DNA from: Sphingomonas bacterium
Lineage (GTDB): Bacteria; Pseudomonadota; Alphaproteobacteria; Sphingomonadales; Sphingomonadaceae
DNA: 44,113 nucleotides
Assembly: GCF_903644055.1 (NCBI RefSeq)
Contig: NZ_CAHJXD010000076.1
Location: 1-44,113, forward strand
Direction: 5' to 3'
Shown here piece by piece: positions 6,966 through 39,297 of this stretch. Numbering within the stretch: the stretch's first letter is position 1; the number at the start of each line of letters is the position of its first letter. A model generated the notes under the pieces. The model was not told the origin of the DNA, did no database searches, and worked only from the letters and a program-made list of their open reading frames with translations. The position numbers and the translations under genes are program-made.

Positions 6966-6975
6966 TCGGCCGGGT

Positions 6976-22591: not shown

Positions 22592-23617
22592 ATGCGCGTC
22601 GATCGCTTCGATTTCGCGCTGCCGCCCGAATGCATCGCGCTCCGGCCCGCGTCGCCCCGCGATGCCGCGCGGCTGCTGGTGCTGGAGGGTGAAGGCACGC
22701 GCGACGCGCACGTCCGCGATCTGCCCGGCCTGCTCCGCGCGGGCGACTGCCTGATCTTCAACGACACGCGCGTCATCCCCGCCCAGCTCGAAGGACGGCG
22801 CGGCGACGCGCGCATCGGCGCGACATTGCACAAACGCGAAGGCCCGCGGACCTGGGTCGCCTTCGTCCGCAACGCCAAACGCGTGCGGATCGGCGACCGC
22901 ATCGATTTCGGCGAAGGCGTCTCGGCCATCGCCGAAGAACGCCGCGACGATGGCGCGCTGTTGCTGAGCTTCGAGGGTGACGAGCCCGTCGAACTGCTGC
23001 TCGCGCGCGTCGGCCGGATGCCGCTCCCCCCCTATATCGCCGCCAGACGCCCCGCCGACGCGCGAGACGCCAGCGATTATCAGACGATGTTCGCCGCCGA
23101 ACCCGGCGCCGTCGCCGCCCCCACCGCCGCGCTCCACTTCACCCCCGCCCTGATCGAAGCGCTCGCCGCCATGGGCATCGCCCACGAAACGCTGACGCTC
23201 CACGTCGGCGCGGGCACCTTCCTCCCGGTCAAGGCCGAGGACACCGCCGATCATCGCATGCACGCCGAATGGGGCCGCATCGATCCCGCCACCGCCACGC
23301 GCCTCGATGCCGTCCGCGCGGGCGGCGGCCGCCTGATCGCGGTCGGCACCACCAGCCTGCGCCTGATCGAAAGCGCCTGCGACGAACACGGGCATATCCG
23401 GCCCTTCGAAGGCGACACCGCCATCTTCATCACCCCCGGCTATCGCTTCAAAGGCATCGACGGCCTCCTCACCAACTTCCACCTTCCCCGCTCGACCCTG
23501 TTCATGCTGGTATCGGCGCTGATGGGGCTTGATCGTATGAAAGCCGCTTACGCTTATGCGATCGAGAATACCTACCGTTTCTATTCCTACGGGGATGCGT
23601 CGCTGCTCCTGCCTTAA
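22592..23617 (+). CDS. queA: QueA, S-adenosylmethionine:tRNA ribosyltransferase-isomerase, with island-supplied 3' end
   Basis: A 341-aa QueA of full length; it adds the cyclopentenediol ring during queuosine synthesis. Landmarks: [64 protein letters not shown] and [19 protein letters not shown]. The last about 29 codons (from 23530) are lower in GC and use different synonymous codons (GCTTACGCTTATGCG and so on). A separate host-like copy of the same tail is at 39175-39297 next to tgt. The coding region is thus a chimera: the host 5' part fused to a tail brought by an integrated island. Ends with LLLP at 23617; the displaced copy ends LLLPS. Confidence 0.95.
23498..23529 (+). repeat. Left attachment-site repeat inside queA
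   Basis: CTGTTCATGCTGGT, one mismatched base, then TCGGCGCTGATGGGGCT. It matches 39175-39206 at 31 of 32 bases, 15,677 bases away, in direct orientation. The matched DNA is within the queA codons for [11 protein letters not shown]. Confidence 0.92.
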
Positions 23618-23732
23618 GGCGCATTCCGATGGGAAGTTGGTGGGCTTCTGATCAAAGCTCTAATCGCCCGAAAATTAATTCGATCATGGTATGTTCCGCC
23701 TATTGCATGTGACCGAGTCATTGTGCAGAACA

Positions 23733-23748
23733 CTGCTGCAAACAGCAG
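23733..23748 (+). promoter_or_regulatory. Inverted repeat before the ribbon-helix-helix gene
   Basis: CTGCTG-CAAA-CAGCAG, 6-bp arms, ending 11 bases before the ATG at 23760. Candidate operator for the downstream ribbon-helix-helix protein or a structure near its ribosome-binding site (GGGGCGG). Confidence 0.4.
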
Positions 23749-23759
23749 CAGGGGCGGAT

Positions 23760-23951
23760 ATGGCGGTTATCGCAGATGACGGCGTTGCCCGTGTGACAGC
23801 ATCTTTAAGTAGGGCTCAGGAGCAAGCTCTCAAAGATCTCGCTGCAAAACATAAGGTCAGTGTCGCTTGGCTGGTTCGCCATGCCGTAGATCAGTTTCTC
23901 GAACAAAATCGCGAAACGCAACTTCCGCTTAATCTCGGGCAGCTGAGCTAG
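23760..23951 (+). CDS. Small ribbon-helix-helix (CopG-like) protein
   Basis: A 63-aa protein MAVIADDGVARVTASLSRAQ, with a beta strand (ARVTASLS) followed by two helices (EQALKDLAAKHK and SVAWLVRHAVDQFLEQ), the layout of a CopG/Arc-type ribbon-helix-helix DNA-binding domain. GGGGCGG lies 4 bases ahead of ATG 23760; an upstream in-frame start at 23691 would add a non-conserved lead. It precedes a methyltransferase by 2 bases, so it may control the restriction-modification genes, or be an antitoxin-like partner. No toxin gene is adjacent. Confidence 0.65.
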   Translation: MAVIADDGVARVTASLSRAQEQALKDLAAKHKVSVAWLVRHAVDQFLEQNRETQLPLNLGQLS

Positions 23952-23953
23952 CT

Positions 23954-25114
23954 GTGGCGTTGCTCGATTCACTGGTTTCGTCGCGCAGGGCTAACAATGC
24001 CTTTTCGTACGCGAAAACGCGTATGCCCGTGATCGATCTCTTCGCAGGGGCTGGCGGTCTCAGCATCGGCGCACATCATGCAGGCTGCGAAGTACGTGTT
24101 AGCGTCGAGCAGGACACAATTGCCTGCCGAACGCTGCGTGCCAATGAGGGCCTTCACGGTGCGGTGATCGAAGCCGATGTTTCAACACTGACTGGTCTCG
24201 CGTTGCGGAATGCTGCACGATTGGGTCCGACTGACCCTTTGATCGTTGTCGGCGGCGCGCCTTGCCAGCCATTTTCTAAGGCTGCTTATTGGGTCGAAGA
24301 CGGCGACGAGGCTCGTTATCGGCAGGCACGTGCTGCTGGCATTGCAATGGAGCGCCCATTAGCCCCTACAGCGGTGCGGCCCGATGCTCGCCGGACATTA
24401 GTCGAAGAGTTCTGGCGGCTAATCTTCGAGTCAAATGCGGATGGATTCGTTTTTGAGAACGTCCCCAGCATCAAGCATCCACGCAACAAACCGGTGCTCG
24501 AGGGTTTTCGGACATCGGCAGAAGCAGCGGGATATCAAGTTGTTGAGGTCACTGCCAATGCTGTCGAATATGGCGTCGCGCAAGCCCGGCAGCGCGTTTT
24601 CCTATTGGGCGCAAAGCGTTGCAACCCGATAGCGCCGAAGCCTACGCACGCTCTCAAGTTTGAGGCGGGACGGAAGTCGGCAATCACGGCAGGCGAGGCT
24701 CTCGAAGGTTTTGATCACCCTCGCTTTTTCGAACCGGAGGAGCTCGTAATCGGTCGATGGGCGGAGCATCTGCGAACCGTGCCTCCGGGTGGCAACTACA
24801 AGGCCCATACAGCTTGGGCGGGACATCCCAGTCCCACATTCGTCACTGAAACGCGCTTCTGGAATTTTCTTCTAAAGCTAGCGCCTGATCGGCCTTCTTG
24901 GACGATTGCAGCATCGCCTGGGCCATGGACCGGACCATTCCACTGGTCGGACCGCCGTCTGCGCACCGTAGAAATGGCAGCGCTTCAGGGCTTTCCGAAT
25001 AACTATAGTTTGGCTGGCAGCAGGCGAGATCGTGTGCGCCAATTGGGCAACGCGGTGCCACCTCCATTAGCGTGTCGAATGGTTGAGGCTGTGCTTGCGG
25101 CAGTCGATCGATAG
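23954..25114 (+). CDS. DNA C5-cytosine methyltransferase 1
   Basis: A 386-aa C5-cytosine methyltransferase. Motif I DLFAGAGGLSIGA (residues about 28-40), motif IV GGAPCQPFSKAAY with nucleophile Cys104, motif VI FVFENVPS, motif VIII QARQRVFLLGAK, motifs IX-X RQLGNAVPPPLACRM. Between VIII and IX lies a target-recognition region ending FLLKLAPDRPSWTIAAS. GTG 23954 chosen (2 bases after the RHH stop); ATG 24023 is another candidate that trims the lead. Shares long blocks with the next gene: a paralogous pair. Together they probably protect both strands of one asymmetric site. Confidence 0.9.
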   Translation: MALLDSLVSSRRANNAFSYAKTRMPVIDLFAGAGGLSIGAHHAGCEVRVSVEQDTIACRTLRANEGLHGAVIEADVSTLTGLALRNAARLGPTDPLIVVGGAPCQPFSKAAYWVEDGDEARYRQARAAGIAMERPLAPTAVRPDARRTLVEEFWRLIFESNADGFVFENVPSIKHPRNKPVLEGFRTSAEAAGYQVVEVTANAVEYGVAQARQRVFLLGAKRCNPIAPKPTHALKFEAGRKSAITAGEALEGFDHPRFFEPEELVIGRWAEHLRTVPPGGNYKAHTAWAGHPSPTFVTETRFWNFLLKLAPDRPSWTIAASPGPWTGPFHWSDRRLRTVEMAALQGFPNNYSLAGSRRDRVRQLGNAVPPPLACRMVEAVLAAVDR

Positions 25115-25122
25115 GAGGGCGT

Positions 25123-26172
25123 GTGCGAAGCATAAGCCTGTTTAGCGGTTGCGGCGGCCTTGATTTGGGACTGCATGAGGCTGGATTCCGAACTGCGCTT
25201 GCCAGCGATTTCGAGGCTTTGTGCAGCGAGACGTGGCGGCGCAATATGCCTAAAACTCCTTTCCTTGTCGGCGGGATCGGCACGATTGATCGTAATGATG
25301 TTGCCGAGGCTCTCGGCGGGACAATCGGAGAGATCGATCTCGTTGCAGGCGGCCCTCCTTGTCCTCCGTTTTCAAAAAGCCGCTTCTACCGCAAGGAAAT
25401 GCCTCGTGCGCTCGATGACCCTAGCGGTTGGGAGACGATCAACGGTTATCTCAATATGCTTGATTGGGTACGCCCTCGGGCGTTTATCCTAGAGAATGTG
25501 AAGGGCTTAGCCTACAAAGTCCATGCGGACGCACTTGAAACGATTATTAGCCGCGCGGAGGGGTTAGGCTATAAAGTCACAACAGGCGTTTTGAACTCTG
25601 CTGATTACGGGGTACCGCAGATTCGTGAACGCTGTTTTGTAATTGGTTCGTTAGAAGCGCGCGTTGAACTTCCGAAACCGACACATTCTAATCAGCCGGA
25701 TTCTATTTTGTTACCATGGGCTACTGCGGGTGAGGTCCTGGCCGACCTAGACACTGAACAGAATGCTGGCGACTTGGGCCATTTCGCCGGTGGCCAACAC
25801 CACGACTTGCTTCGTCAGGTACCGCCGGGAGATAACTACCTATATTTTACAGAAAAGCGCGGCCATCCCGAGCCTAAGTTCAAGTGGCGCGGGCGGTACT
25901 GGTCGTTCTTACTAAAACTTAGTCCGGATATGCCATCGTGGACTATCCAGGCGCGGCGCTCCAACAACATGGGGCCATTCCATTGGCGCAATCGTATCTT
26001 GAGGATCAGCGAAATTAAGCGGTTGCAGACATTTCCCGACAACTTCGATCTTTCCGGCACTATTGAGCGGCAATGGCGTCAAATCGGCAATGCCGTTCCA
26101 CCTGTTCTGGCGGCGGCGGTGGGGCGCAGCGTTGCCGAGGCGCTAGGGACGCCGTTACGCAAAGCTGCATGA
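25123..26172 (+). CDS. DNA C5-cytosine methyltransferase 2
   Basis: A 349-aa C5-cytosine methyltransferase: motif I SLFSGCGGLDLGL (residues 5-17), motif IV GGPPCPPFSKSRF with Cys80 (the rarer PCP form), motif VI ILENVKGLAY, motif VIII PQIRERCFVIGS, motifs IX-X QIGNAVPPVLAAAV. The segment FLLKLSPDMPSWTIQARRS and GPFHWRNRILRISEIKRLQT matches the first enzyme, so they arose by duplication. GTG start with AGGAGG 4 bases ahead. Its stop overlaps the nuclease start (ATGA). Lower GC than the host. Confidence 0.9.
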   Translation: MRSISLFSGCGGLDLGLHEAGFRTALASDFEALCSETWRRNMPKTPFLVGGIGTIDRNDVAEALGGTIGEIDLVAGGPPCPPFSKSRFYRKEMPRALDDPSGWETINGYLNMLDWVRPRAFILENVKGLAYKVHADALETIISRAEGLGYKVTTGVLNSADYGVPQIRERCFVIGSLEARVELPKPTHSNQPDSILLPWATAGEVLADLDTEQNAGDLGHFAGGQHHDLLRQVPPGDNYLYFTEKRGHPEPKFKWRGRYWSFLLKLSPDMPSWTIQARRSNNMGPFHWRNRILRISEIKRLQTFPDNFDLSGTIERQWRQIGNAVPPVLAAAVGRSVAEALGTPLRKAA

Positions 26173-27569
26173 GACGCCTTCCATCTTTCAACGATTTCTC
26201 GCCGGGCATTATCAAAGATGTTCGACGTCCGCTCGAGATACTCGAACGTTTGGCACCAGACATGTCAGCAATTGTCGCTGAATGGGATGGTGCGTTCTTT
26301 GCGAGCGCCGGCAACAAGCGCGCCAGCACGAACATTCCCGCTACGCTAAACAGTCTTGGCCTGATGACCCGCCAACCACTTGCTCTCACCGACGTGGGTA
26401 AAGCTATTCTCGCCGCACCAGATGCTACGGAAGCCGCACAACGGATGATCAGTCACATCGTCGCCACGGGCAACGGCATGGCTATCGTCGATGCGGTGCG
26501 CTCGCTTAATCGTCGGGGAGAAGACCTAACCAAGGCAAGTCTGAAGCGTGAGCTAGAGGTCGGCGGCATACAGGGGTTGTCGAACGCGACGACTGATCAC
26601 ACGACGTTACTTAATTGGATGGTGTTAGCAGGGCTTTTCACCAAAGACGGGCGGGGCAATCCAGAACCTGTAGACGCGGTGATGAAGGCGGTCCTCGGCA
26701 TTTCGGATTCTGAGCGGTCTGGCTTTGCCGAGTTGCCGCTGAATCAGCAGATCTTTATCCGAGTGCTGCGCCGGCTTGCTGAGACCAATGGCGGAACGGA
26801 AACCCCAGCTAAGCAAGTAATTGACGAGTGTTTACGAGAACATCGCGCACGGTTCGATGAGGATCAGATCCGATCGAAAATCATCAATCCTCTTATCGAC
26901 GCCGGCTGGGTCGAGGTGCCGGCTGGTCCCAGCGTCACCGGCCGAGGCGGTAAAAGCGGGGTGATCATACCATCAGCTAAGTTGATGGGCATTCCGATCA
27001 CTTCTGTGCTGCCCGACTTCGATCAAATTATCCCGTCCGACCTTCGCGCCAAAATCGACCTCCCCCGCGCTGAAGTGCAGCAGCTGCTAGAAAGCAGAGA
27101 CACTTATGAAAGAGGCCTGGGCCTCGAATTGCTCGCGCTTAAAATGATCCTTGATATCGGACTTGAACCAAGGGCGTTTCGTTTGCGAAGCCGCGACACG
27201 GCTCACGCCGAGGTTGATTTGACCGCTGAGGGCAAAAACCTGCTATTTTCGCGCTGGAATTTTCAATGCAAGTGCATAACCAACCGGGTCAGCTTAGGTG
27301 ATGTGGCTAAGGAAGTCGGCCTTGCCATTTACTCGAAAGCGCATGTTGTCGCCGTCGTTACTACGAGCGACTTCTCTAGCGAAGCCATTGCATACGTTCG
27401 CGAGATTACGCAGGCGACGCATCTACAGTTTTTGCTTATAAACGGTGTGATTGTTAAAGGCTATCTCGACAAGGGAGCTAGCGTTTTATTGGATTATGTT
27501 GCCGCCAACGCTGCTCGTGTCATGGCGCAAAAGCGCAATCAATCAATTGCTCCCGAGGACGGTAGTTAG
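26169..27569 (+). CDS. Putative PD-(D/E)xK restriction endonuclease
   Basis: A 466-aa protein coupled to the second methyltransferase (ATGA overlap). A nuclease-like core is near the C-terminus: Glu320 in GLELLALKMILDIGLE, then E348-V-D350 in HAEVDLTAEGK and Q366-C-K368 in WNFQCKCITN, the spacing expected for an Mrr-type PD-(D/E)xK fold. The N-terminal 200 residues contain winged-helix-like helices (for example RMISHIVATGNGMAIVDAVR), possibly for DNA recognition. Function inferred from context with two methyltransferases: the cleaving partner of a type II system. Recognition sequence unknown. Confidence 0.75.
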   Translation: MRRLPSFNDFSPGIIKDVRRPLEILERLAPDMSAIVAEWDGAFFASAGNKRASTNIPATLNSLGLMTRQPLALTDVGKAILAAPDATEAAQRMISHIVATGNGMAIVDAVRSLNRRGEDLTKASLKRELEVGGIQGLSNATTDHTTLLNWMVLAGLFTKDGRGNPEPVDAVMKAVLGISDSERSGFAELPLNQQIFIRVLRRLAETNGGTETPAKQVIDECLREHRARFDEDQIRSKIINPLIDAGWVEVPAGPSVTGRGGKSGVIIPSAKLMGIPITSVLPDFDQIIPSDLRAKIDLPRAEVQQLLESRDTYERGLGLELLALKMILDIGLEPRAFRLRSRDTAHAEVDLTAEGKNLLFSRWNFQCKCITNRVSLGDVAKEVGLAIYSKAHVVAVVTTSDFSSEAIAYVREITQATHLQFLLINGVIVKGYLDKGASVLLDYVAANAARVMAQKRNQSIAPEDGS

Positions 27570-27580
27570 TTTCCGTATTA

Positions 27581-28630
27581 TTAAAAGATCAAGCTCAACC
27601 AGTTGAGAGTTGCCTCAACAATCTGCGCAGCTATTTTGCCCACTTCATGATGATATAAAGCTCCACCGCCTGCGACAGTGGTTATGACTGCGCCGACTGC
27701 ACGTTTCCTGATTTCGTCTTTGGCGACATCTTTGACCTTTAGAGCCTCACTCTGGACGGATCGCCAAACCTTGGCAACTCGCTCGATCACGGTGACGCGG
27801 TCCACTATCTCACGAGGTCGAGGCTCGTCCCGCTCCATTTCCTCGCCCATCCCGCGCACGGCATCGGCAATCTCAGCGATGCTCGGATCAGTCAGAGCCT
27901 CCTCCGGTGGGGGGCGATTGTGTCCCATCATTCCCGGTTGTTGGCGTATCTGATCAATTTCACGCTCTAGCGTCGCCAGCCTTTCCAGGATGACGCGCCT
28001 CTCTACCATTTCCGCCTCATCGCCAAAGACTGCCTTGCGGCCGCCGATGGCAATTTCGGCGTATCGCGCCAATTCCGGCAGCCGGTCTTCGCGGTCGCGC
28101 CGAAGTGTCTCGCGGAGAGCCTCGACAGTCATTTGCGCCTCAGCCGGGCTATGAAGTCGCGCTCGATGATTCACATATTCCGCGAGAACATCGGACCTTA
28201 CGGCCACCACTATTTCACTGTTGCTCTTTGTACGCGCCGCGATCCCGGACGCTTCTGACGACTCAAGGGCGGACCGACTAATCTGTAGGGAAGGCGAAGA
28301 CCCCAAAGCACCGAGATGGCGATCGATATCAAAGCAGGCGAAAGCATGGAATTCTTGGCTCCAACCAAGGATTATGGTCTGCGCGCCGATCGCCCGATCG
28401 AAAGATTTTATCCCGGTCGCCTGAATGCGAAGTTCGTCTCTGGAGCGAGTTTTTCCTCCGTGGGTCAGATTCCAAACATAAGCACGGACAGCCAGGCGCT
28501 TATGTCCTCGCGCGATACTGAGCTCAATGGGGTGGACCCCGATCTCGGAAAGCAACTCAACTGACCACCCCGCATCTTTGAAGGATGCGGTGATGCGCTG
28601 AAGCAGGTCGCTTTTCGTCGGTCGTGCCAT
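27581..28630 (-). CDS. Unknown, possibly restriction-related protein with hydrophobic tail
   Basis: A 349-aa protein convergent with the nuclease (11-base gap). Residues about 48-160 hold a conserved-looking block, YVWNLTHGGKTRSRDELRI then IILGWSQEFHAFACFDIDRH and SEIVVAVRSDVLAEYV; I recall similar blocks next to HNH or restriction nucleases, but cannot confirm. A central helix-rich part has MVERRVILERLATLEREID, then the motif GHNRPPPEEAL (a proline-rich signature found in varied alphaproteobacterial mobile-element proteins). The last 40 residues (AVGAVITTVAGGGALY ... LNWLSLIF) are hydrophobic, suggesting membrane attachment. It may sense or act with the RM system; function is not assigned. 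Confidence 0.55.
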   Translation of the reverse strand: MARPTKSDLLQRITASFKDAGWSVELLSEIGVHPIELSIARGHKRLAVRAYVWNLTHGGKTRSRDELRIQATGIKSFDRAIGAQTIILGWSQEFHAFACFDIDRHLGALGSSPSLQISRSALESSEASGIAARTKSNSEIVVAVRSDVLAEYVNHRARLHSPAEAQMTVEALRETLRRDREDRLPELARYAEIAIGGRKAVFGDEAEMVERRVILERLATLEREIDQIRQQPGMMGHNRPPPEEALTDPSIAEIADAVRGMGEEMERDEPRPREIVDRVTVIERVAKVWRSVQSEALKVKDVAKDEIRKRAVGAVITTVAGGGALYHHEVGKIAAQIVEATLNWLSLIF

Positions 28631-29102
28631 CTGATCGACTTACCTTCTTATCAATCCGCCAGCCAGTATCTCCTTTAAACTGTTGGGCAGCGAGGCAGAA
28701 ACACCACCTTATATGAGGGTCTCAAACCCTTCCCACGCAAACGGGTATTGCGAACACCGTCCGGCCTGACCATGATCCGCCGGCCTTCCGTGAAAGCCGG
28801 AAGGTGGGGCGTCGAAACCTCAATCGATGAACTCGGTCCACGGAACTTGATTCCGAGGCCGGGTGGCATGCGCGTATGTCCAGCCGGCGACGGTAAAGGC
28901 GCATGCGCCTGTTCATCGATCAGGTTTCGAACATCCGGCTTCGGCCGTCGCCCCGAGAGGAACATAGGGGCGGCACGAGGTTGAGCCGAAGGTCGCTCCG
29001 CAAGTGGGGGCGACATCAATGACAGCAACGATCTGACACGTCAGCGCAACCGCGTTCTGACGCGATTTCGCATGCCTTCAATCATCAACAGGGGAACAGT
29101 TT
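28631..29102. other. 472-base gap without convincing gene
   Basis: No coding region with good support: short frames exist on both strands (117 aa minus, 78 aa plus) but show no recognisable domain or ribosome-binding site. It holds two perfect palindromes: CCTTCCG-7 nt-CGGAAGG (28784-28804) and AGGCGCATGCGCCT (28897-28910). Could hold regulatory RNA or the remnant of a gene. Confidence 0.5.
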
Positions 29103-29540
29103 ATGAAGCGAACCATCTTTTCCGAAAAATACGATTACCTGCTTGCAGTGGCAGCGCTCGCGCTGACGTTCTGGGCCTTTTACGACATGAAAGCTGCTGT
29201 GGGCGGCGGAGTAATCTTGATAGCCGTCGCCAACTTACAACCGATTCAGCGTCTGGGAATTTCCCGCAACACGGCCACCCTTCTGGGGGTGTCGTTACTC
29301 CTCATCCTATCGATCAGTCTCAAGCTCATCGACCAAACAGGATATTGTTACGCATTCTTTGGCCCGCAACGGCAAGGAATTGATTTCATCAACATCCAGA
29401 TGCCGTGCTTTGCTAACAACGACTTCTATTCTGATGTTGATCAACCGGGCGGCATGGGCTTCGTCCGCGATATTGGGCTCCCGCTAGGCGGGCTGGCACT
29501 AGGCCTGATTATGCTCAGCAACTCACGCAAGGAGCTTTGA
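29103..29540 (+). CDS. Four-span membrane protein of unknown function
   Basis: A 145-aa protein with about four hydrophobic segments: LLAVAALALTFWAFYDM (12-28), AVGGGVILIAVANL (32-45), TLLGVSLLLILSISLKLI (58-75) and IGLPLGGLALGLIML (about 126-140). A loop of about 45 residues with two cysteines (GYCYAFFG and MPCFANNDF) sits between spans 3 and 4, possibly disulfide-linked outside. AGGGGAAC precedes ATG 29103. No family recognised. Ends 1 base before the small gene at 29542. Confidence 0.65.
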   Translation: MKRTIFSEKYDYLLAVAALALTFWAFYDMKAAVGGGVILIAVANLQPIQRLGISRNTATLLGVSLLLILSISLKLIDQTGYCYAFFGPQRQGIDFINIQMPCFANNDFYSDVDQPGGMGFVRDIGLPLGGLALGLIMLSNSRKEL

Positions 29541-29541
29541 T

Positions 29542-29706
29542 ATGACCAAGAAGCTCCGATCCATCGTCGCAGCGCTGCTCATTCTGCTGACAGCGTTACC
29601 GCCAATCATACATCTTACACTCGGCGATGCCATTAAAGCAAAACAGAATCGAGACGCTGTTCAGTCAATAAAGGAACTAGAAAGATTGTCAGACTCTATG
29701 CATTGA
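29542..29706 (+). CDS. Small single-span peptide
   Basis: A 54-aa protein, MTKKLRSIVAALLILLTALP followed by PIIHLTLGDAIKAKQNRD and a charged helix QSIKELERLSDSM. A positively charged start and a hydrophobic stretch resemble a signal anchor or exported peptide. GGAG at 29531 precedes the ATG by about 7 bases, inside the previous gene's end. It belongs with the 29103 gene by position. Function unknown. Confidence 0.5.
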   Translation: MTKKLRSIVAALLILLTALPPIIHLTLGDAIKAKQNRDAVQSIKELERLSDSMH

Positions 29707-29780
29707 TCACGTCAATCTAAGCCTACACGACTTTAAGTGCTTCGCTGTAGGGCGATCGCGCTCACTACTAACCAAAGCCA

Positions 29781-29810
29781 AGCCCTCGGCCTCACCGCCG
29801 GGGGCTTTTT
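29781..29810 (+). terminator. Rho-independent terminator before the 29826 gene
   Basis: Stem AGCCCTCGGC / GCCGGGGGCT (10 bp with one G-T pair), loop CTCACC, followed by TTTTT. A textbook terminator, yet it ends only 15 bases before the next start codon. Confidence 0.8.
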
Positions 29811-29825
29811 ATATTGGAGAAAACT

Positions 29826-30215
29826 ATGTACATCATTGCCAGCCCGAGTGCGTTTAGCAGCGCGCTCGATCCTCCAACCGCTCCTGCCATCCGATCGCTA
29901 TTGCGCCTCCGCATTGATCTGGCGGAGGAAGCTTGGTTCTACATCGTCGAGCCCGGTGATGGCCTTCCAGAAGTGGAGCAGACACTCGGCTTTCCGCTGT
30001 TGGTCAACTTGACCGGCGACGGCCCCGCTCCATCATGGGAATGGTCAATGGACCACGGCGGCTGCATCGAAGTCGCGTTCATTCTTTCCGATGACTTTGC
30101 TCACATCTTGGTAGTGCTGACCAGCAGCGAAATCGATCCTGCTCTGCTCGCGCTAGTGCGCGTCGGAGCCATTATCGCACCAACATCCACCGAGGCTGCA
30201 ACACCTAAGGGCTAA
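29826..30215 (+). CDS. Unknown small protein, paralogue of the 30355 gene
   Basis: A 129-aa soluble protein. The core FYIVEPGDGLPEVEQTLGFP, EWSMDHGGCIEVAF and ILSDDFAHILVVLTS aligns with the 30355 protein (FVIVEQGDREADIIDAIGM; VMIVSFGSAFAYILII). ATG 29826 is preceded by GGAGA. It starts just after a terminator, so it is likely transcribed under its own control or by read-through. No known family recognised. Confidence 0.6.
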   Translation: MYIIASPSAFSSALDPPTAPAIRSLLRLRIDLAEEAWFYIVEPGDGLPEVEQTLGFPLLVNLTGDGPAPSWEWSMDHGGCIEVAFILSDDFAHILVVLTSSEIDPALLALVRVGAIIAPTSTEAATPKG

Positions 30216-30309
30216 GTTGTCCATCGTCGTTCCTGGCCGCCGCAGTCTCGAACGAAAAGCCAAATAAAGCCAACAAACCTGCCGCCACAACGCGGCTCCC
30301 AGTTCGCAA

Positions 30310-30335
30310 GGCCCTCGCCTTCGCGGGCTATTTTT
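30310..30335 (+). terminator. Hairpin with T-run before the 30355 gene
   Basis: Stem GCCC-x-CG / CG-x-GGGC with loop CCTT, followed by TATTTTTATG. Weaker than the one at 29781 but placed the same way, 20 bases before a start codon. Confidence 0.5.
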
Positions 30336-30354
30336 ATGCCTGGAGCATATCCAC

Positions 30355-30747
30355 ATGAAGACTATCTACGATCGCGCCTCAATAGCGCACACGCTCACGC
30401 TCGACCTCAACCCCGACCTCCGCGCAATCCTCAAACGCCGCTTCGCCTCCCTGCACACACGCTGGGGAGATTTAAGCGATCACACCGAGTTCGTGATCGT
30501 CGAGCAGGGTGATCGCGAAGCCGACATCATTGATGCCATCGGCATGTCGCCGCTTCTCGATCCCGATGGAGGCCGCTTTGGTAACAAAGGATTCCATCCC
30601 TTTTGGGATCACCTCGATTACGAAGACGGCCACTGGGTGATGATCGTCAGCTTCGGCTCGGCTTTCGCGTATATCTTGATCATCCCCAACGCAGACGGCG
30701 TGATACCAGAGCTTCAGTGCCTATGCCGAATGTTCGCAGAGGCATGA
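30355..30747 (+). CDS. Unknown small protein, paralogue of the 29826 gene
   Basis: A 130-aa soluble protein beginning MKTIYDRASIAHTLTLDLNP. Central FVIVEQGDREADIIDAIGM and PFWDHLDYEDGHWVMIVSFG, then SAFAYILIIPNADG and ELQCLCRMFAEA. It shares its layout with the 129-aa protein at 29826, including an acidic, tryptophan-rich middle and a FAxIL segment. GGAG at 30341 (9 bases ahead) is the ribosome-binding site. Function unknown. Confidence 0.6.
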   Translation: MKTIYDRASIAHTLTLDLNPDLRAILKRRFASLHTRWGDLSDHTEFVIVEQGDREADIIDAIGMSPLLDPDGGRFGNKGFHPFWDHLDYEDGHWVMIVSFGSAFAYILIIPNADGVIPELQCLCRMFAEA

Positions 30748-30983
30748 AGATCATAGGCATCTTCATCGTCGCTTGCGTCGTGATTGCGGCGGCATAAGCC
30801 ATTGCCGTCGCATTGTACCTCGCCGTCCTTCTCAGCATCATCGTGGGCTTGTTCACCAAACCACGAGAGGTATTTGGCTTACTCGCGATATGTACGGTCA
30901 TCGGTATGGTTCAGGCTCAGCCGGCGGTCAGCCTTGGCGTCGCCGCGTTGGCAATAATCGCTCGCACAATTCAACGGCAATAG
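30744..30983 (+). pseudogene. Small membrane ORF interrupted by an in-frame TAA
   Basis: From ATG 30744 (overlapping the previous stop as ATGA) it reads MKIIGIFIVACVVIAAA, then TAA at 30795-30797. The same frame goes on without another stop to TAG at 30981: AIAVALYLAVLLSIIVGLF, KPREVFGLLAICTVIGMV and so on, two more hydrophobic segments. Either a broken three-span protein, or a 17-aa peptide plus a second small protein started at TTG 30813. Not decided. Confidence 0.4.
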
Positions 30984-31002
30984 CCCTACACGTCTCCATC
31001 AA

Positions 31003-31413
31003 TCAATCTATCTGATAGTAGGTTTCGCCCGTGACTTTGTTCGTGACTTCCCGGCCTAAGGGCTGATCAAGGGGCACACCTTTCAATTCCATGATGCGCT
31101 CGAAGTTGGTTTTTTCGCGAGCTTCGTACAGCGAGCGAACTAACAGCTCAGCAGTAGGGCGAAACCGGTGCCCGTAGGGCGTCAGCCTGTAAGTCGGCCT
31201 CTTCGTGAAAAGCGTTCTGCCGAGCCATGCTTCTAGGCTCCGTATGCGTCCCCGCAGCGTCGAATCATCAATCGCAAGCCTGTCAGCAGCAGTCTTCGTC
31301 GCTCCGGTTCGAATGATTGCCAAAAACGTTTCAAATTGGGCGAGGCTGACCGTGGTCGGGGTGGGGGACTCATCCGCTTCATTTGGTTCGGCCGACTTTT
31401 TGCTGACTCCCAC
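31003..31413 (-). CDS. LysR-type DNA-binding domain protein, no ligand domain
   Basis: A 136-aa protein. The helix-turn-helix of LysR regulators is clear: LAQFETFLAIIRTGATKTAA, then LAIDDSTLRGRIRSLEAWLG and RTLFTKRPTYRLTPYGH. A normal LysR regulator has about 200 more residues for ligand binding; here only 55 follow, ending VTGETYYQID. GTG 31413 has GGGAG 6 bases upstream (TTG 31419 would overlap it). Divergent from the 31641 gene, with two palindromes in the shared region: a likely switch for the island. Confidence 0.75.
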   Translation of the reverse strand: MGVSKKSAEPNEADESPTPTTVSLAQFETFLAIIRTGATKTAADRLAIDDSTLRGRIRSLEAWLGRTLFTKRPTYRLTPYGHRFRPTAELLVRSLYEAREKTNFERIMELKGVPLDQPLGREVTNKVTGETYYQID

Positions 31414-31431
31414 GTGCAACTCCCAGCCTCG

Positions 31432-31450
31432 GATTAATTCTGAATTAGTC
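31432..31450. promoter_or_regulatory. AT-rich palindrome, candidate operator
   Basis: GATTAATTC-T-GAATTAGTC: 9-bp arms with one mismatch, centred 28 bases before the LysR-like start codon. Size and position fit autoregulation by that protein. Confidence 0.5.
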
Positions 31451-31499
31451 GCACAAACGAATCGCGAAATCGAGAGTCTACCGTGGCGCAGGAGTGCGA

Positions 31500-31516
31500 C
31501 CGGGGAATTTCCCCGG
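31500..31516. promoter_or_regulatory. Perfect GC palindrome, candidate operator
   Basis: CCGGGGAA-T-TTCCCCGG, 8-bp perfect arms, between the divergent LysR-like gene and the 31641 gene. Could be a second operator or a hairpin in the leader of 31641. Confidence 0.45.
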
Positions 31517-31640
31517 AAGCTCTAAGTGGGCCGTGGGGGAAGAACGCTCTCCAGAACGCATTGTCGAATTGGATCGAGAAAGTATCATGCACAGCAGACA
31601 GAGCGATAACACTCTGCGAATCGATTAAGACAGGACAAAC

Positions 31641-31799
31641 ATGAAAGACGATCAGAAACGTCAAAGTTTTGGAGATTTCGATATTCCGGATAACTCACCT
31701 CTCCAATACCGGAAACAACTCAAACGACTTAGGGATGTGTTGCGGATGGCCAACAAGGTGATCGCGGAACATGATCGCAAGGCGCGTGCTTCATCTTAG
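31641..31799 (+). CDS. Small basic protein of unknown function
   Basis: A 52-aa protein: MKDDQKRQSFGDFDIPDNSP, then LQYRKQLKRLRDVLRMANKV and EHDRKARASS. Highly basic helix in the middle, suggesting nucleic-acid or protein binding. ATG 31641 is preceded by AGACAGGACAAAC. It follows the divergent LysR-like gene and precedes the RepA-like gene by 124 bases. Possibly an excisionase-like or regulatory protein, but no such motif is clear. Confidence 0.45.
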   Translation: MKDDQKRQSFGDFDIPDNSPLQYRKQLKRLRDVLRMANKVIAEHDRKARASS

Positions 31800-31923
31800 C
31801 TTTACAGCGCTGCAGCGCGTCACGGTGTTCATGCGAAGCTCGCACCGAAACGGTGCGGCGCTGCCATCCAAGAAAAGCTCGGCTGCCCGCTGGCTTACCA
31901 ACTTCAACTGAAAGGCATCGTTG

Positions 31924-33432
31924 ATGCTAACCTCCTTTTCAGCAATTTCGGCTGTACCTGAACCTCCACAATCGTCTGCGAAGATCGCGGTCAGCAGCCT
32001 GTTCCTCGACCCGCCTCCCGTAGACCCGCTTGTCGAGTTTGGCCTTATACCAACCGGCGAGGGCGAATATCTGCTCCCTCCCTCTGTCATCATGCTTCAG
32101 GCGAACGGCGAGCACACGCACGCCGCATTGATTGAAATGCTCAAAACGATGGGCGTCCCGTCGCACTTTGCCCTCGTGAAAGGTGACCGCCGCCTGGCAC
32201 TCTACAGATTGGACAATCCTGCGCTAATCAGTCCGCTCAGGCGCGCTGTGCCAGACGGGGTCGATCTCATCAGCGAAGGTGAGAAGGTCGATCTCAGTGG
32301 CGTCGATCTCAGCGAAGGTCTCGCGAAAAACGTCGCTGAGCTTTCGGTGCTCGCTGCCGCCCACGTCAATCAGCTGACAACCTCGGCACCTGAACCGGCC
32401 GCGAGCAGTAATGCGCTTGTTCCGTTCAGCCTGCGCGGACAGGCAGATAAGTTCAAGCGGCTCGCGATCGAGGCGAAACCTCTCCTTGGCGACGTATGCC
32501 TCAAGGGGCAGGTAACAATCTGGTATGCCGGTCCCGGCATAGGGAAAACGCTGCTTGCGTTGAGCCTCGTCGTCGATGCCGTGCGGGAGGGGCGGATTGC
32601 TGCCGGCAATGTGTTCTTTGTGAACGCCGACGACAACGGTTCCGGCTTTGCCACAAAGCTTCAGATCATGGACGACCTCGGCGCACACACCCTTTCGCCG
32701 GGCTTCCGAAACCTGCGAAACAGCGTGCTTATAGCGCTACTCCACAAGCTGGCGGACGATGACGACGCGCGGGGTGTTTTGGTCATCGTCGACACGATCA
32801 AGAAATTCGGAAGCCTCATGGATAAGAAGGAATCAAGCGCCATCGCCCAAGCGTTTCGACAGGTTGCCATGAGGGGTGGCAGCGTACTTGGCCTCGCGCA
32901 TACCACCAAGAACGCTAACGCCGATGGGACCGCGCGTTACGCCGGAACTTCCGATCTCGTTGATGATGCCGATGCCGTTTACACTATCAGCAAGCTGTCC
33001 ACCTCGACCGAAGAAAAAGAGAAGGTGGTCGAGTTCCGGCGGGTCAAAGCCCGTGGCGACTCCGCCGAAAGGGCGGCCTACGCCTATGCTGGCGAGACCG
33101 GCGTACCGTACGACGAACTGCTGGCATCGGTCCGCCTCATCGATCCGCAACAGATCGACGAATTCAAGCGAGTCGAAGAACAGCGATCGGACGCCGATCT
33201 CATCACGGTCGCGTCTGCCTGCATCACAGAGGGCATCAATACTAAGATGATCCTCGCCAAAGAGATCGCGTCCAGGACCGGGATCAGCGGCCGGGAGGGC
33301 GGCCGACTGATCGATCGCTACACCGGCGATGATCCGCTGCAACATCGCTGGCAGTTCAAACGCGGCGGGCGAGGAGCGTTCATTTACGAGCTGCTTCCAT
33401 TGTTGCCGCCGGGCGATCTCGCGCCCACCTAA
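31924..33432 (+). CDS. RepA-like AAA ATPase (helicase family)
   Basis: A 502-aa protein. The AAA_25/RepA-like ATPase domain starts near residue 165: Walker A YAGPGIGKTLLALS (Lys208), then FFVNADDNGSGFATKLQIMD, and Walker B-like RGVLVIVDTIKKFG, with sensor region VLGLAHTTKNANADG. Hexameric helicases of this type unwind DNA for plasmid or phage replication. The N-terminal 160 residues (with LIPTGEGEYLLPPSVIML) are not recognised. ATG 31924 (TTG 31921 alternative). Near the integrase, this suggests the element can replicate after excision. Confidence 0.75.
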   Translation: MLTSFSAISAVPEPPQSSAKIAVSSLFLDPPPVDPLVEFGLIPTGEGEYLLPPSVIMLQANGEHTHAALIEMLKTMGVPSHFALVKGDRRLALYRLDNPALISPLRRAVPDGVDLISEGEKVDLSGVDLSEGLAKNVAELSVLAAAHVNQLTTSAPEPAASSNALVPFSLRGQADKFKRLAIEAKPLLGDVCLKGQVTIWYAGPGIGKTLLALSLVVDAVREGRIAAGNVFFVNADDNGSGFATKLQIMDDLGAHTLSPGFRNLRNSVLIALLHKLADDDDARGVLVIVDTIKKFGSLMDKKESSAIAQAFRQVAMRGGSVLGLAHTTKNANADGTARYAGTSDLVDDADAVYTISKLSTSTEEKEKVVEFRRVKARGDSAERAAYAYAGETGVPYDELLASVRLIDPQQIDEFKRVEEQRSDADLITVASACITEGINTKMILAKEIASRTGISGREGGRLIDRYTGDDPLQHRWQFKRGGRGAFIYELLPLLPPGDLAPT

Positions 33433-33606
33433 CAGCATCACAGCAGCGTTTCAGATTTTTGCCGTCGCGCAGCCGCGCCCGGCCGCAACGCTGAACCTTC
33501 CCGCAAATCTGCCGCGCTGCACTGAGCGAGTGCCCGCGCACCGTGCTCTGAGTCTCAAAACCGAGGTTCGGAAAACGACTTCCCTTGCCATTTTTAGGAG
33601 ACCGAT

Positions 33607-34014
33607 ATGTCCAACATTAAGACCGCCACCGAAATGCTAGCACAGCGCCGCACTTACAAAGCGCTCATCGAACGGGGCAGAGCCTTCATGCGCGACCGAC
33701 AAGCGATCGTCGCCGATGAAGATTGCCTGCTCATCATGATTATGGCGTGCATCGCCGAAGGCGCTCGGACGCGAGACGATATCGTCCGGAATGTCCCTCG
33801 ATTTGTGGGCTTCGGCTATGCAGAGGTCGCCTCCGTCTTGGACCGCTTTTCGGGTCCGACGATCAACGACGGGTATTGGTACCGCGATGATAACAAGGCT
33901 TATCATCTCCAGCTCCCGGTAGTCCGTATAGAGCCGCCTGTTGATTTACGGACGGGCCCCATACTGCGGAAACGAAAGCCTTCAACGGTCGCCGATCTCG
34001 ATCAGCCATACTGA
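33607..34014 (+). CDS. Unknown small protein between RepA-like gene and integrase
   Basis: A 135-aa protein: basic start (TATEMLAQRRTYKALIERGR), a helical middle (CLLIMIMACIAEGARTRDDI) and a wing-like segment YAEVASVLDRFSGP ... YWYRDDNKAYHLQ, which could be a winged helix. AGGAG lies 6 bases before the ATG. May be a DNA-binding partner of the RepA-like protein. No family recognised. Confidence 0.55.
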   Translation: MSNIKTATEMLAQRRTYKALIERGRAFMRDRQAIVADEDCLLIMIMACIAEGARTRDDIVRNVPRFVGFGYAEVASVLDRFSGPTINDGYWYRDDNKAYHLQLPVVRIEPPVDLRTGPILRKRKPSTVADLDQPY

Positions 34015-34021
34015 TTTAATT

Positions 34022-34038
34022 GCGGGGTAACGCCCCGC
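34022..34038 (+). terminator. GC hairpin after the 33607 gene
   Basis: GCGGGG-TAACG-CCCCGC, 6-bp stem, starting 8 bases after the stop codon; no T-run follows. In the 209-base leader of the integrase there is also an inverted pair CGGCTCTCC (34063) / GGAGAGCCG (34127). Confidence 0.45.
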
Positions 34039-34223
34039 TGTAGCCCCGCTGGGAACGCCAACCGGCTCTCCCCGGCTCCCCCTGAACGCGCCGGAAACTG
34101 CCCAACCTCGCCCGCCTGCGGACCGAGGAGAGCCGACCCGCGCCCGTGCATCAGCCGACCATCGCCGCCGCTCGGCGCGCTCCTGCGTGCCCAACCGCCC
34201 CTCAATTGCTCAAGGAAACAGAA

Positions 34224-35390
34224 ATGCCAGTCATAAAAATCACCAACACCGCAATCTTGATCGCGACCTGCCCGCCCGACAAACGCAAGATCACGCTGTT
34301 CGACGAGGCTCTGACGGGCTTCATGTGCGAGATCGCCCACAACCGCAAAACATACGCGGTTCGATACACCGACGATCGCAGCAAGCAGATTCAGTATAAG
34401 ATCGGGGATGCGTCGGTATTGACGGCCGACCAAGCCCGTAGGGTGGCCTTGAGGGTCAAGGCGCAAGCCTTAACTGGTGAAAGCCCCCAAGCGAAGCGCA
34501 AGGTCATCCGGCAGGTGCCGACCCTGGCAGAATTCGCTCCGCGCTATCTGGACCACGCCCGCGAGAACAAGCGCTCGTCAGATATCGATGAGCGATATCT
34601 ACGCCTTCACCTGCTTCCGCGCTTCGGCAAGCAGCATCTCGATAAGCTCAACCAGACCGAGATCATGGAATGGCTGAACGGGAAGGTGAAGGATGGCTAT
34701 GCACAGGCGACCGTAAATCGCTGGCAGGTGATCCTGTCGTGCATGATGCGGCTCGCCGGGGACTGGGGTGTGCCGGGGGCGGAGCGCAATCCTTTGAAGG
34801 GCGCGAAGCTCAAGGATCCCGACAACAGGAAGGAACGGTTCCTTACGCAGGAGGAGGTCAGGCGGCTCAAGGTCGCGGTCGAGCAAAGTCCCAACGCGAA
34901 GTTGGGCCAGATCGTCGCCTTGCTCCTGCTTACAGGGTGCCGGAAACGGGAAATCCTGGATGCCAAGTGGGATCAGGTCGACTTCGAGAACAAGAGCCTA
35001 AAGATCCTGAAGGGTAAAACCGGCGCTCGGCATGTGCCGCTCGGGGATGAGGCGTTGGCGGTCTTCCGTTCAATTCCTCGTCTTGATCGGTGCCCATACA
35101 TCGTGGCGAACCCCAAAACGAAGGTACCGTTCACCTCGATCTTCACGAGCTGGGATCAGGCGCGGCATCGAGCAGGCCTTGGCGACGTCCGCTTACATGA
35201 CCTGCGCCACACTCTGGCAAGTCACCTTGCCCAATCTGGTCATTCGCTCTGGGTCATCGCGAACGTGCTGGGCCATGCCCAGACACGGACCACCGAGAGG
35301 TACGCTCACCTCTCAACCGAGACACTTCGCAACGCGGTGAACACGGCCGTCAAGGCGAGCGGCACGACTTGGACGCTTCCCACCATCTAA
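34224..35390 (+). CDS. Tyrosine recombinase (phage-type integrase)
   Basis: A 388-aa integrase with all catalytic residues: Arg240 in LTGCRKREILD, Lys in GKTGARHVPLG, His325/Arg328 in LHDLRHTLASHL, His351 in LGHAQTRTTE and nucleophile Tyr360 in RYAHLS. The N-terminal arm-binding and DUF4102-like regions (TDDRSKQIQYKIGDASVLTA) are present. AAGGA sits 8-12 bases ahead of ATG 34224. It lies 3.8 kb from the right end, unlike many islands where it borders the attachment site. The most likely enzyme for insertion into queA. Confidence 0.92.
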   Translation: MPVIKITNTAILIATCPPDKRKITLFDEALTGFMCEIAHNRKTYAVRYTDDRSKQIQYKIGDASVLTADQARRVALRVKAQALTGESPQAKRKVIRQVPTLAEFAPRYLDHARENKRSSDIDERYLRLHLLPRFGKQHLDKLNQTEIMEWLNGKVKDGYAQATVNRWQVILSCMMRLAGDWGVPGAERNPLKGAKLKDPDNRKERFLTQEEVRRLKVAVEQSPNAKLGQIVALLLLTGCRKREILDAKWDQVDFENKSLKILKGKTGARHVPLGDEALAVFRSIPRLDRCPYIVANPKTKVPFTSIFTSWDQARHRAGLGDVRLHDLRHTLASHLAQSGHSLWVIANVLGHAQTRTTERYAHLSTETLRNAVNTAVKASGTTWTLPTI

Positions 35391-35397
35391 CCGAAAC

Positions 35398-35422
35398 CCG
35401 GCCTGCGCTTCGGCGCAGCCGG
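35398..35422 (+). terminator. TTCG-loop hairpin before the 35440 gene
   Basis: CCGGC-TGCGC-TTCG-GCGCA-GCCGG with one bulged C, just after the integrase stop and 17 bases before the next start. No strong T-run. Stabilising tetraloop suggests a real RNA structure. Confidence 0.55.
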
Positions 35423-35439
35423 TAATCATTGGACACACC

Positions 35440-35733
35440 ATGACTACACCGGATGATTCCACTAACTGGACGCCTGATCAGAACGCCGAATTCTTTCGAG
35501 GTCTGCGGGCACTCAAGCGGGCCAGCGGCTCAAATAAGCACGAGCAAGCGACCAATCTGATTCATGCGCTACTCGATGCGCGCATCAACACCCGGCGTCG
35601 TATTGTCGGCGCGTTGCGCGAACTCGAATTCAACCACCAGCATGTCGTCATTACGTTGAAGGCAGGATTACGAGCTGGCAATTGGTCGTGCGATGACGAC
35701 GGCTATTACCGTTCCAGCTCATCCCCGCCGTAA
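35440..35733 (+). CDS. Small unknown protein after the integrase
   Basis: A 97-aa helical protein: TPDQNAEFFRGLRALKRASG, TNLIHALLDARINTRRRIVG and ELEFNHQHVVITLKAGLRAG, ending WSCDDDGYYRSSSSPP. The middle helix is Arg-rich. Preceded by a hairpin like other small genes of the island. No family recognised; a DNA-binding or antirestriction role is possible but not shown. Confidence 0.55.
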   Translation: MTTPDDSTNWTPDQNAEFFRGLRALKRASGSNKHEQATNLIHALLDARINTRRRIVGALRELEFNHQHVVITLKAGLRAGNWSCDDDGYYRSSSSPP

Positions 35734-35742
35734 CCAAACCTG

Positions 35743-35771
35743 ATCCCATCCGCGAAGCTCGCGGGTGGGAT
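35743..35771 (+). terminator. Strong hairpin after the 35440 gene
   Basis: 13-bp stem ATCCCATCCGCGA / TCGCGGGTGGGAT with one G-T pair and loop AGC, starting 9 bases after the stop; followed by ATTCCTATT. Likely ends the integrase transcript. Confidence 0.65.
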
Positions 35772-35831
35772 ATTCCTATTATGTTTACGGCGCCGGGTGG
35801 CGTCATATCGAAGGAATTGTTGGGCGTGCAG

Positions 35832-37058: not shown

Positions 37059-37139
37059 AACTCTCTCCCGCTGCTTTGCGCTGGCCCGCCGGCTCAGCGT
37101 ATGTGTTGGCATGCATTCGTCGGGAGCCCATGGGAAACT

Positions 37140-38936: not shown

Positions 38937-38940
38937 CGGA

Positions 38941-39160: not shown

Positions 39161-39174
39161 GGCCTCCGCTAAAT

Positions 39175-39206
39175 CTGTTCATGCTGGTCTCGGCGCTGAT
39201 GGGGCT
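39175..39206 (+). repeat. Right attachment-site repeat
   Basis: CTGTTCATGCTGGT, C, then TCGGCGCTGATGGGGCT. Matches 23498-23529 at 31 of 32 bases. Similarity to queA begins exactly here: the bases just before (TCCGCTAAAT) do not match queA. Confidence 0.92.
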
Positions 39207-39297
39207 GGATCGGATGCAGGCGGCCTACGCCCACGCGATCGCCGAGGGCTATCGCTTCTACAGCTACGGCGATGCGAGCCTGCTGTTGCCTAGCTGA
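39175..39297 (+). pseudogene. queA: Stranded host queA 3' end
   Basis: A 40-codon fragment in the queA frame, reading [20 protein letters not shown], then [20 protein letters not shown] and TGA at 39295. GC-rich, like the host. The corresponding part of the intact gene (queA at 22592) reads [20 protein letters not shown] with A/T-rich codons. This fragment was the original 3' end of the host queA before the island inserted. It sits 51 bases before tgt, restoring the ancestral queA-tgt order if the island were removed. It has no start codon or ribosome-binding site of its own. Confidence 0.93.

What the first reader, a model, noticed from the sequence alone, without database searches (positions are those of the whole stretch)
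23760..27569. Restriction-modification cluster with two paralogous C5-cytosine methyltransferases and a nuclease
Two methyltransferases share long blocks (FLLKL-PD-PSWTI; GPFHW--R-LR--E---LQ-FP-N) but differ in catalytic context (PCQ versus PCP) and in the variable region. Paired enzymes are typical of systems that modify an asymmetric target, one per strand. The coupled ORF has a PD-(D/E)xK-like core. Recognition site unknown.
Basis: partly seen in the sequence, partly recalled or inferred. Interest (0 to 1): 0.6.

Follow-up and report, generated by a model that had tools for sequence, protein, structure and literature searches.

The report
Twin-methylase restriction system on a mobile island
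A Sphingomonas-type bacterium carries a DNA-cutting defence system protected by two sister cytosine methylases; the kind is known, but no curated gene model clearly covers this cutter, its relatives swap methylase partners, and the comparison yields a testable guess at the sequence it reads.

Summary
At 23760-27569 lie a ribbon-helix-helix (RHH) regulator, two intact C5-cytosine methyltransferases (M1, PCQ; M2, PCP) and a 466-aa protein (R) with an Mrr-type PD-(D/E)xK domain: a Type II restriction-modification system on a ~15.7-kb integrative island at the 3' end of queA, conserved in other sphingomonads. (2) M1 and M2 are more alike in the target-recognition block (56%) than in the core (29%), and that block occurs in single C5 methylases beside SacI-family (GAGCTC) nucleases in 7 of 14 loci. 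I predict a target built on AGCT, perhaps asymmetric CAGCTC/GAGCTG, one enzyme per strand: inference, nothing biochemical tested. (3) An MTaX1-domain protein is a recurrent partner, often fused to HNH or, with LlaJI, to a GTPase; in the window it has a GHNxPP motif and hydrophobic tail. New variant of a known kind.

The parts
23700..23759 (+). putative operator of the RHH regulator: TGCA boxes at -56, -36 and -23 from the RHH start
   Evidence: 31 TGCA in the 640 bp of -80..-1 over 8 loci against 26 in the 8000 bp further upstream; aligned columns conserved mainly here
23760..23951 (+). ribbon-helix-helix regulator, 63 aa (a longer ORF starts at 23691)
   Evidence: PF12651 E 3.9e-4 and PF01402 E 8e-4, both just under cut-off; 70-77% identical genes in the same place in L005-L010, L019 and L034
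23954..25114 (+). M1, C5-cytosine DNA methyltransferase (PCQ)
   Evidence: PF00145 E 3e-43, TIGR00675 over cut-off; motifs present
25123..26172 (+). M2, C5-cytosine DNA methyltransferase (PCP)
   Evidence: PF00145 E 2e-53, TIGR00675 over cut-off
26169..27569 (+). R, restriction endonuclease: N-terminal winged-helix recognition part (about 1-290) and C-terminal Mrr-type PD-(D/E)xK domain (about 310-440)
   Evidence: PF04471 E 8.7e-8; AF2 model pLDDT 81, pTM 0.55; nucleases among the nearest solved folds: Nt.BspD6I, MspJI, PaqCI, BpuJI recognition domain
27581..28630 (-). convergent MTaX1-domain protein with a GHNxPP motif and hydrophobic C-terminal tail; possible accessory effector
   Evidence: PF20296 E 1.3e-25; full-length relative G149/L083 33%; MTaX1 proteins beside R in L005, L006 (partial), L034, L015, L019, L020, L021, L029
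34146..35390 (+). tyrosine integrase of the island
   Evidence: PF00589 E 8e-26, PF13356
23498..23614 (+). queA 3' end, left border repeat of the island
   Evidence: 117-nt direct repeat, 77% identical to 39175-39291; queA and tgt adjacent in congener G028 (L073)
39175..39291 (+). displaced queA 3' end before tgt, right border repeat

Best explanation
A self-contained Type II restriction-modification system carried by an integrative island. M1 and M2 put 5-methylcytosine on the two strands of one target (inferred: one enzyme per strand of an asymmetric site). R binds the unmodified site through its N-terminal winged-helix part and cuts with its C-terminal Mrr-type domain (motif and predicted fold shown, binding and cutting inferred). 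The RHH protein represses the operon through TGCA boxes, so that expression is timed when the island enters a new cell (box conservation shown, repression inferred). The target most likely contains AGCT: R's other relatives work with M.PvuII-like (CAGCTG) methylases, and the M1/M2 recognition block is that of C5 methylases beside SacI-family (GAGCTC) nucleases; the best single guess is CAGCTC/GAGCTG.
For: Family models; conserved operon and purifying selection. Of 22 R loci none lacks a methylase: 12 have M1 and M2, the other 10 have an M.PvuII-like MTase (L015's aligns to M.PvuII 1boo at E 1e-107 over residues 12-292). R of L057, which sits with a C5 pair, is 36-42% identical to six PvuII-partnered R (30% to L016) and 28% to the window's R. 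TRD identity M1 to M2 56%, core 29%; M1 and M2 to six SacI-linked MTases 54/58% in the TRD, 34/38% in the core. SacI-family R beside single MTases of this TRD class in 7 of 14 loci (L018, L045, L060, L062, L063, L065, L066); in the viral-contig search with the block profile 5 of the 8 single-MTase loci, that profile itself holding the two SacI-linked rows L018 and L045. Architecture compatible with Type IIS/IIT enzymes. RHH operator.
Against: No methylation or cleavage data. M.SacI itself could not be compared; the SacI link is by neighbourhood, and 7 of 14 single-MTase loci show no SacI-family R in the stretch held (L061, L064 and L067 are short upstream; L017, L069, L070, L071 are not). L045 was found by searching for the SacI nuclease, so its link is not independent. 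The same M1/M2 pair type also serves LlaJI-type nucleases (L055, L056 by Pfam; probably L058), and LlaJI itself reads GACGC (PMC1459862), so other targets are possible. L071 holds a single MTase with an M1-like recognition block beside an MTaX1 protein, which fits a palindrome better than one strand of an asymmetric site. A single origin of the C5 pairing of R is not rejected (p 0.358). pTM of the R model is only 0.55, and rows unrelated to nucleases (ORC/Cdc6, RPB5) reach equal or higher Z. RHH models are just below cut-off.
Confidence: 0.75

Rival explanations
1. Both C5 MTases act on one palindrome (for example CAGCTG or a degenerate AGCT-centred site), redundantly or as an obligate pair, and R cuts that palindrome.
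For: 10 R relatives live with an M.PvuII-like MTase whose target is palindromic; M1 and M2 recognition blocks are alike; a single MTase with an M1-like block exists (L071).
Against: For one palindrome a single MTase suffices, yet both are present in all 12 C5-type R loci and both are under purifying selection where compared; the M1 and M2 blocks keep different, clade-specific residues even in distant systems (L055, L057, L059).
Confidence: 0.2
2. The Mrr-type protein is a modification-dependent (Type IV) nuclease that merely sits beside a methylase pair.
For: Its catalytic domain is near Mrr/MspJI-type folds, and its only PADLOC hits are weak ones to a candidate-system model (PDC-M58A, E 0.003) and a Type IV restriction model (mREase_IV, E 0.026).
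Against: All 22 R loci examined have an MTase, and in at least 8 (the window, L005-L010, L019) the R start overlaps the M2 end; a nuclease cutting the product of its partner would be suicidal.
Confidence: 0.08
3. M1/M2 belong functionally to a LlaJI-type system (target GACGC-like) and R is a later add-on.
For: M1/M2 pairs of the same type precede MTaX1-GTPase and RE_LlaJI in L055, L056 and, with R as well, in L057; L058 has genes of like size in the same places.
Against: No RE_LlaJI or MTaX1-GTPase hit among the eight proteins of the cluster and its neighbourhood that were scanned; LlaJI-family nucleases need not share LlaJI's specificity; R and the pair occur together in 12 loci.
Confidence: 0.1

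Closest known systems
PvuII restriction-modification (CAGCTG, m4C; PMC2997769, passage read)
   Same: 10 R-family loci carry an MTase of this family; L015's aligns to M.PvuII at E 1e-107
   Different: Here two C5 enzymes stand in the MTase's place; R is an Mrr-type two-domain protein, whereas R.PvuII is a small unrelated enzyme (recalled)
SacI restriction-modification (GAGCTC, C5; PMC4725820, passages read)
   Same: Recognition block of the C5 MTases found beside SacI-family nucleases
   Different: The seven SacI-linked loci found here have one C5 MTase of this class and a PF09566-type nuclease; the window has two MTases and no PF09566 hit
LlaJI (GACGC/GCGTC; two 5mC MTases, GTPase R1 and PD-(D/E)xK R2; PMC1459862, abstract and first part of Results read)
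   Same: Two 5mC MTases for an asymmetric target; L055-L057 pair M1/M2 homologues with RE_LlaJI
   Different: Window has a one-protein nuclease instead of the GTPase plus LlaJI pair
Type IIA/IIT systems with two MTases, such as BbvCI (PMC4081073, passages read)
   Same: Asymmetric target with one MTase per strand is described there as general for Type IIT and common for Type IIA
   Different: BbvCI has two R subunits (PMC6326814, abstract in listing); here one R chain
Nt.BspD6I, BpuJI, PaqCI (Type IIS architecture)
   Same: N-terminal recognition part and C-terminal PD-(D/E)xK domain by model comparison (Z 8.7-9.3)
   Different: Catalytic domain is Mrr/MspJI-like; no significant sequence match of R in the PDB
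MTaX1-domain proteins (PMC10853773, one passage read)
   Same: Methylase-linked MTaX1 gene, suggested there to discriminate modified DNA
   Different: Window version ends in a GHNxPP motif plus hydrophobic tail instead of HNH or a GTPase

Membership tests
Type II restriction-modification with paired C5 MTases | two complete C5 MTases | tested here: met
   PF00145 148.9 and 182.3 bits; motifs aligned
Type II restriction-modification with paired C5 MTases | linked restriction endonuclease with an intact active-site motif | tested here: met
   Mrr_cat; EVD and QCK invariant in 12 aligned sequences
Type II restriction-modification with paired C5 MTases | asymmetric target, one MTase per strand | not testable with these tools
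   needs methylome data
Type II restriction-modification with paired C5 MTases | R cuts unmodified DNA | not testable with these tools
   needs protein
Type IIS | separate N-terminal recognition and C-terminal cleavage domains in one chain | tested here: inconclusive
   AF2 model and middling structural matches
Type IV (Mrr, MspJI) | no cognate MTase | tested here: not met
   MTase present in 22 of 22 loci
Type IV (Mrr, MspJI) | cuts modified DNA | not testable with these tools
   needs protein
LlaJI | GTPase R1 and PF09563 R2 | tested here: not met
   no such hit among the eight proteins scanned at the cluster; present in relatives L055-L057
SacI | PF09566 endonuclease | tested here: not met
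   R gives no PF09566 hit; no match of two SacI-family nucleases anywhere in the window; no SacI-profile hit in L005-L011, L019, L035, L057
SacI | C5 MTase recognition block | tested here: met
   54/58% identity to six SacI-linked MTases against 34/38% in the core; M.SacI itself not available
PvuII | M.PvuII-type m4C MTase | tested here: not met
   no match of the L015 MTase in the window; M1 and M2 are PF00145
MTaX1 | PF20296 domain | tested here: met
   90.6 bits, cut-off 25

The most novel reading that the evidence does not exclude
One specificity neighbourhood around AGCT is shared by interchangeable parts: a PvuII-type m4C MTase or a split SacI-type pair of C5 MTases on the modification side, and Mrr-type R, MTaX1-HNH or MTaX1-GTPase plus LlaJI on the restriction side. 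The window's system reads the hybrid asymmetric site CAGCTC/GAGCTG (half PvuII, half SacI), and its MTaX1-GHNxPP protein reads the same mark and kills or arrests the cell through the membrane if cutting fails.
Probability: 0.12. Interest if true: 0.7.

Novelty: new variant of a known kind. Interest (0 to 1): 0.45.

Why it matters
It links a restriction-enzyme family that no searched NCBIfam or PADLOC restriction model clearly covers to two well-known specificities, and turns 'site unknown' into a one-experiment question. If right, it shows how a palindromic MTase could become a strand-specific pair, and how one modification can be shared by several restriction modules. It would also add an Mrr-type enzyme with an asymmetric six-base site, and a concrete test of what the MTaX1 domain reads.

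Tried and rejected
Sequence search of R in the PDB gave only chance hits to glycogen phosphorylases, E 0.23 and up. R in phage records: none. The best PADLOC model for M1 and M2 is a Druantia methylase (DruM), followed closely by Type II MTase models; none of the other three proteins scanned in that call matched a Druantia model, so I did not pursue it. SacI-family R in viral contigs by its own pattern scan: none; such genes came up later through the recognition block. Literature: the rows listed by searches (capped lists) showed no paper on this R family, on an Mrr-type PvuII isoschizomer or on the GHNxPP tail; the MTaX1 search gave one relevant paper of five. An analogy with BsuM of B. subtilis was considered from memory and dropped (one search gave no usable paper). 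The first tree of R had two rows in a wrong frame (L035, L032) and was redone with L014 and a corrected L032. Structural look at the MTaX1 protein: top Foldseek rows are SPARDA subunits (E 1.1e-3 and up, none at or below 0.001); VIA-align lists mostly PD-(D/E)xK folds for the N-terminal part (I-Ssp6803I Z 8.3, Hjc 7.6, NhoI 5.7), within the range that chance can give; the C-terminal part was not modelled with confidence (pLDDT mostly under 50). Only a lead. The promoter and terminator scan found no more than shuffles give.
Full report
What is there. Window 23760-27569 holds RHH, M1, M2 and R in one direction, the R start codon overlapping the M2 stop. The window is contig C76 of a fragmented genome (G000, 2.41 Mb, 297 contigs, 92% complete). 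The named loci with a relative of R found are from Sphingomonas (3) and Sphingopyxis (3), at 75-81% identity, and Phenylobacterium (1, 60%). One search shows one further C5 MTase in this genome (contig C162), apart from the pair. M1 and M2 are clear PF00145 proteins; R carries Mrr_cat with an invariant EVD...QCK signature. No NCBIfam model hit R (E up to 1), and in PADLOC its only hits were PDC-M58A, a candidate-system model (E 0.003), and mREase_IV (E 0.026); R of L015 and L020 had none at 0.01.

Conservation and spread. R is rare and scattered: 3 of 397 genomes of the family and 6 of 385 of the class, own genome included in both counts, yet 75-81% identical between two genera, which speaks for horizontal transfer. 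RHH-M1-M2-R keeps its order in L005-L010, L019 and L034; L011 has M1-M2-R without a detected RHH; L014/L035 has M1-M2 with a convergent, much more diverged R (36%). dN/dS is about 0.1 or less for all four genes in the 4 pairs compared for each (dS saturated in 12 of 16, then taken as 2).

The island. A 117-nt stretch of the queA 3' end (23498-23614) is repeated at 39175-39291 just before tgt, 77% identical. Between them lie a tyrosine integrase and an AAA ATPase. One congener of six, G028, has queA and tgt side by side (L073), the arrangement expected of an empty site; in G110 the start of tgt comes about 1.4 kb behind queA, and in the other four no tgt lies in the 1.5 kb held behind queA. Congener G217 has another queA 3' fragment about 5 kb behind its queA. 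The R-M operon is therefore most likely cargo next to the left border of an element that uses queA; excision was not tested. No queA match was found in the stretches held around the relatives' operons.

The regulator. Over eight loci the DNA upstream of RHH is unalike except for about the last 60-80 bases, which repeat TGCA: 31 in 640 bp against 26 in the 8000 bp before. Short repeated boxes before its own gene are what an RHH repressor would use (general knowledge). The Pfam RHH hits are just below the curated cut-off.

What R works with. I examined 22 R loci. Twelve (window, L005-L011, L013/L034, L014/L035, L019, L057) carry the M1/M2 pair. The other ten (L015, L016, L020-L022, L029-L033) carry an M.PvuII-like N4-cytosine MTase, L016 three of them (Pfam PF01555 in the eight of these loci whose MTase was scanned). 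That of L015 matches M.PvuII over 12-292 with E 1e-107, the whole region between included. M.PvuII reads CAGCTG (PMC2997769, passage read). R of L057, with a C5 pair, is 36-42% identical to six of the PvuII-partnered R, 30% to L016 and 28% to the window's; the tree suggests but does not prove two switches (p 0.358 for one clade). Among the ten, L016 has lost the QCK residues and the R of G439 (L032) and G654 (L033) have in-frame stops.

What M1 and M2 read. C5 MTases usually differ most in the target-recognition domain (general knowledge). Here it is the reverse: 56% identity in the 61-column block against 29% in the core. The same block is found in single C5 MTases beside SacI-family nucleases: L018, L045, L060, L062, L063, L065 and L066, 7 of the 14 single-MTase loci (L017, L018, L045, L060-L067, L069-L071). 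L045 entered by a search for the SacI nuclease, L018 by a plasmid search with M2, and both are rows of the block profile A5; among the eight single-MTase loci that this profile brought from viral contigs it is 5, and L061, L064 and L067 hold little DNA upstream of the MTase. Among the three other genomes of the class that the profile found it is 0 of 3 (L069-L071). A SacI profile found nothing in ten R-plus-pair loci or in three PvuII-type loci. M.SacI is a C5 MTase for GAGCTC (PMC4725820, passages read). Relative to the SacI-linked block M2 keeps FxWRxRYW and changes the PG loop; M1 keeps PGPWxGPFHW and changes the WR part; mean identities of M2 and M1 to the SacI-linked rows are 80 against 60 in the first sub-block and 54 against 64 in the second. 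Put together with the PvuII link, an AGCT core is likely (I would say 0.45) and CAGCTC/GAGCTG is the neatest reading (0.2). L071, a single MTase with an M1-like block, speaks against strict one-strand action of that block type.

The other effectors. M1/M2 pairs of the same type also precede an MTaX1-GTPase and an RE_LlaJI protein (Pfam in L055 and L056; L058 has genes of the same size in the same places, the first with a weak MTaX1 match); L057 has R as well, five genes in a row. MTaX1-HNH proteins sit beside R in L005, L034, L015, L019, L020, L021 and L029 (HNH_2 confirmed by Pfam in L005 and L015, elsewhere read from the sequence or from a full-length match), and a partial one in L006; one lies beside a PvuII-like MTase in L085. 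None was detected near R in L007, L009-L011, L022, L030-L033 or L035; L008 ends soon after R. In LlaJI the GTPase subunit alone bound the site in gel shifts (PMC1459862, first part of Results read), so MTaX1 may be a site or modification reader, as PMC10853773 proposes (passage). The window's MTaX1 protein lacks HNH and ends in GHNRPP plus a hydrophobic helix; one full-length relative was found (G149), and the tail recurs behind other N-termini, among them pentapeptide repeats. A membrane-acting back-up is a guess.

How R is built. The AF2 model (pLDDT 81, pTM 0.55) has a helical N-terminal part and a C-terminal PD-(D/E)xK domain. Best Foldseek hits are Nt.BspD6I (7e-4) and MspJI (9e-4); VIA-align gives AF1548 Z 10.4, MspJI 9.2, Nt.BspD6I 9.3 (rmsd 20), PaqCI 9.0 and the BpuJI recognition domain 8.7, among ORC/Cdc6 winged-helix and RPB5 rows of equal or higher Z, up to 11.1. 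This is compatible with a Type IIS-like layout and so with an asymmetric site, not proof of one.

Verdict. The kind is known; the R family, its partner swapping and the target prediction are what is new here.

Noticed in passing
window 23498-39291: About 15.7-kb integrative island in the 3' end of queA, bringing its own queA end; congener G217 (L081 6641-6760) has another queA 3' fragment, so queA looks like a recurrent integration site.
   Followed up: partly
window 27581-28630 (-); L083, L086-L089: GHNxPP plus hydrophobic C-terminal tail shared by otherwise different proteins (MTaX1, pentapeptide repeats, others) in Sphingomonadaceae; no paper seen in the rows listed.
   Followed up: partly
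L057 3250-10146: Five-gene operon M1-M2-R-(MTaX1-GTPase)-RE_LlaJI: two kinds of restriction module behind one methylase pair.
   Followed up: partly
L021 6138-10706: PvuII-like MTase, MTaX1-HNH, R and an EVE-HNH protein in one cluster.
   Followed up: no
L037 4001-6051: Prophage-like Paracoccus plasmid with a C5 MTase followed by an MTaX1-HNH protein between terminase and portal genes.
   Followed up: no
L016 4470-9817: Haloarchaeal plasmid with three PvuII-like MTase matches around an R homologue that has lost the QCK residues, beside BREX-5 pglZ.
   Followed up: no
L009 9440-15448: Directly after R a DUF4420 PD-(D/E)xK protein and, further on, a weak C5 MTase match: looks like a defence island; L010 has ORFs of like size in the same places.
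   Followed up: no
window 6947-7024 (-): tRNA-like hit of ARAGORN with an undetermined anticodon.
   Followed up: no
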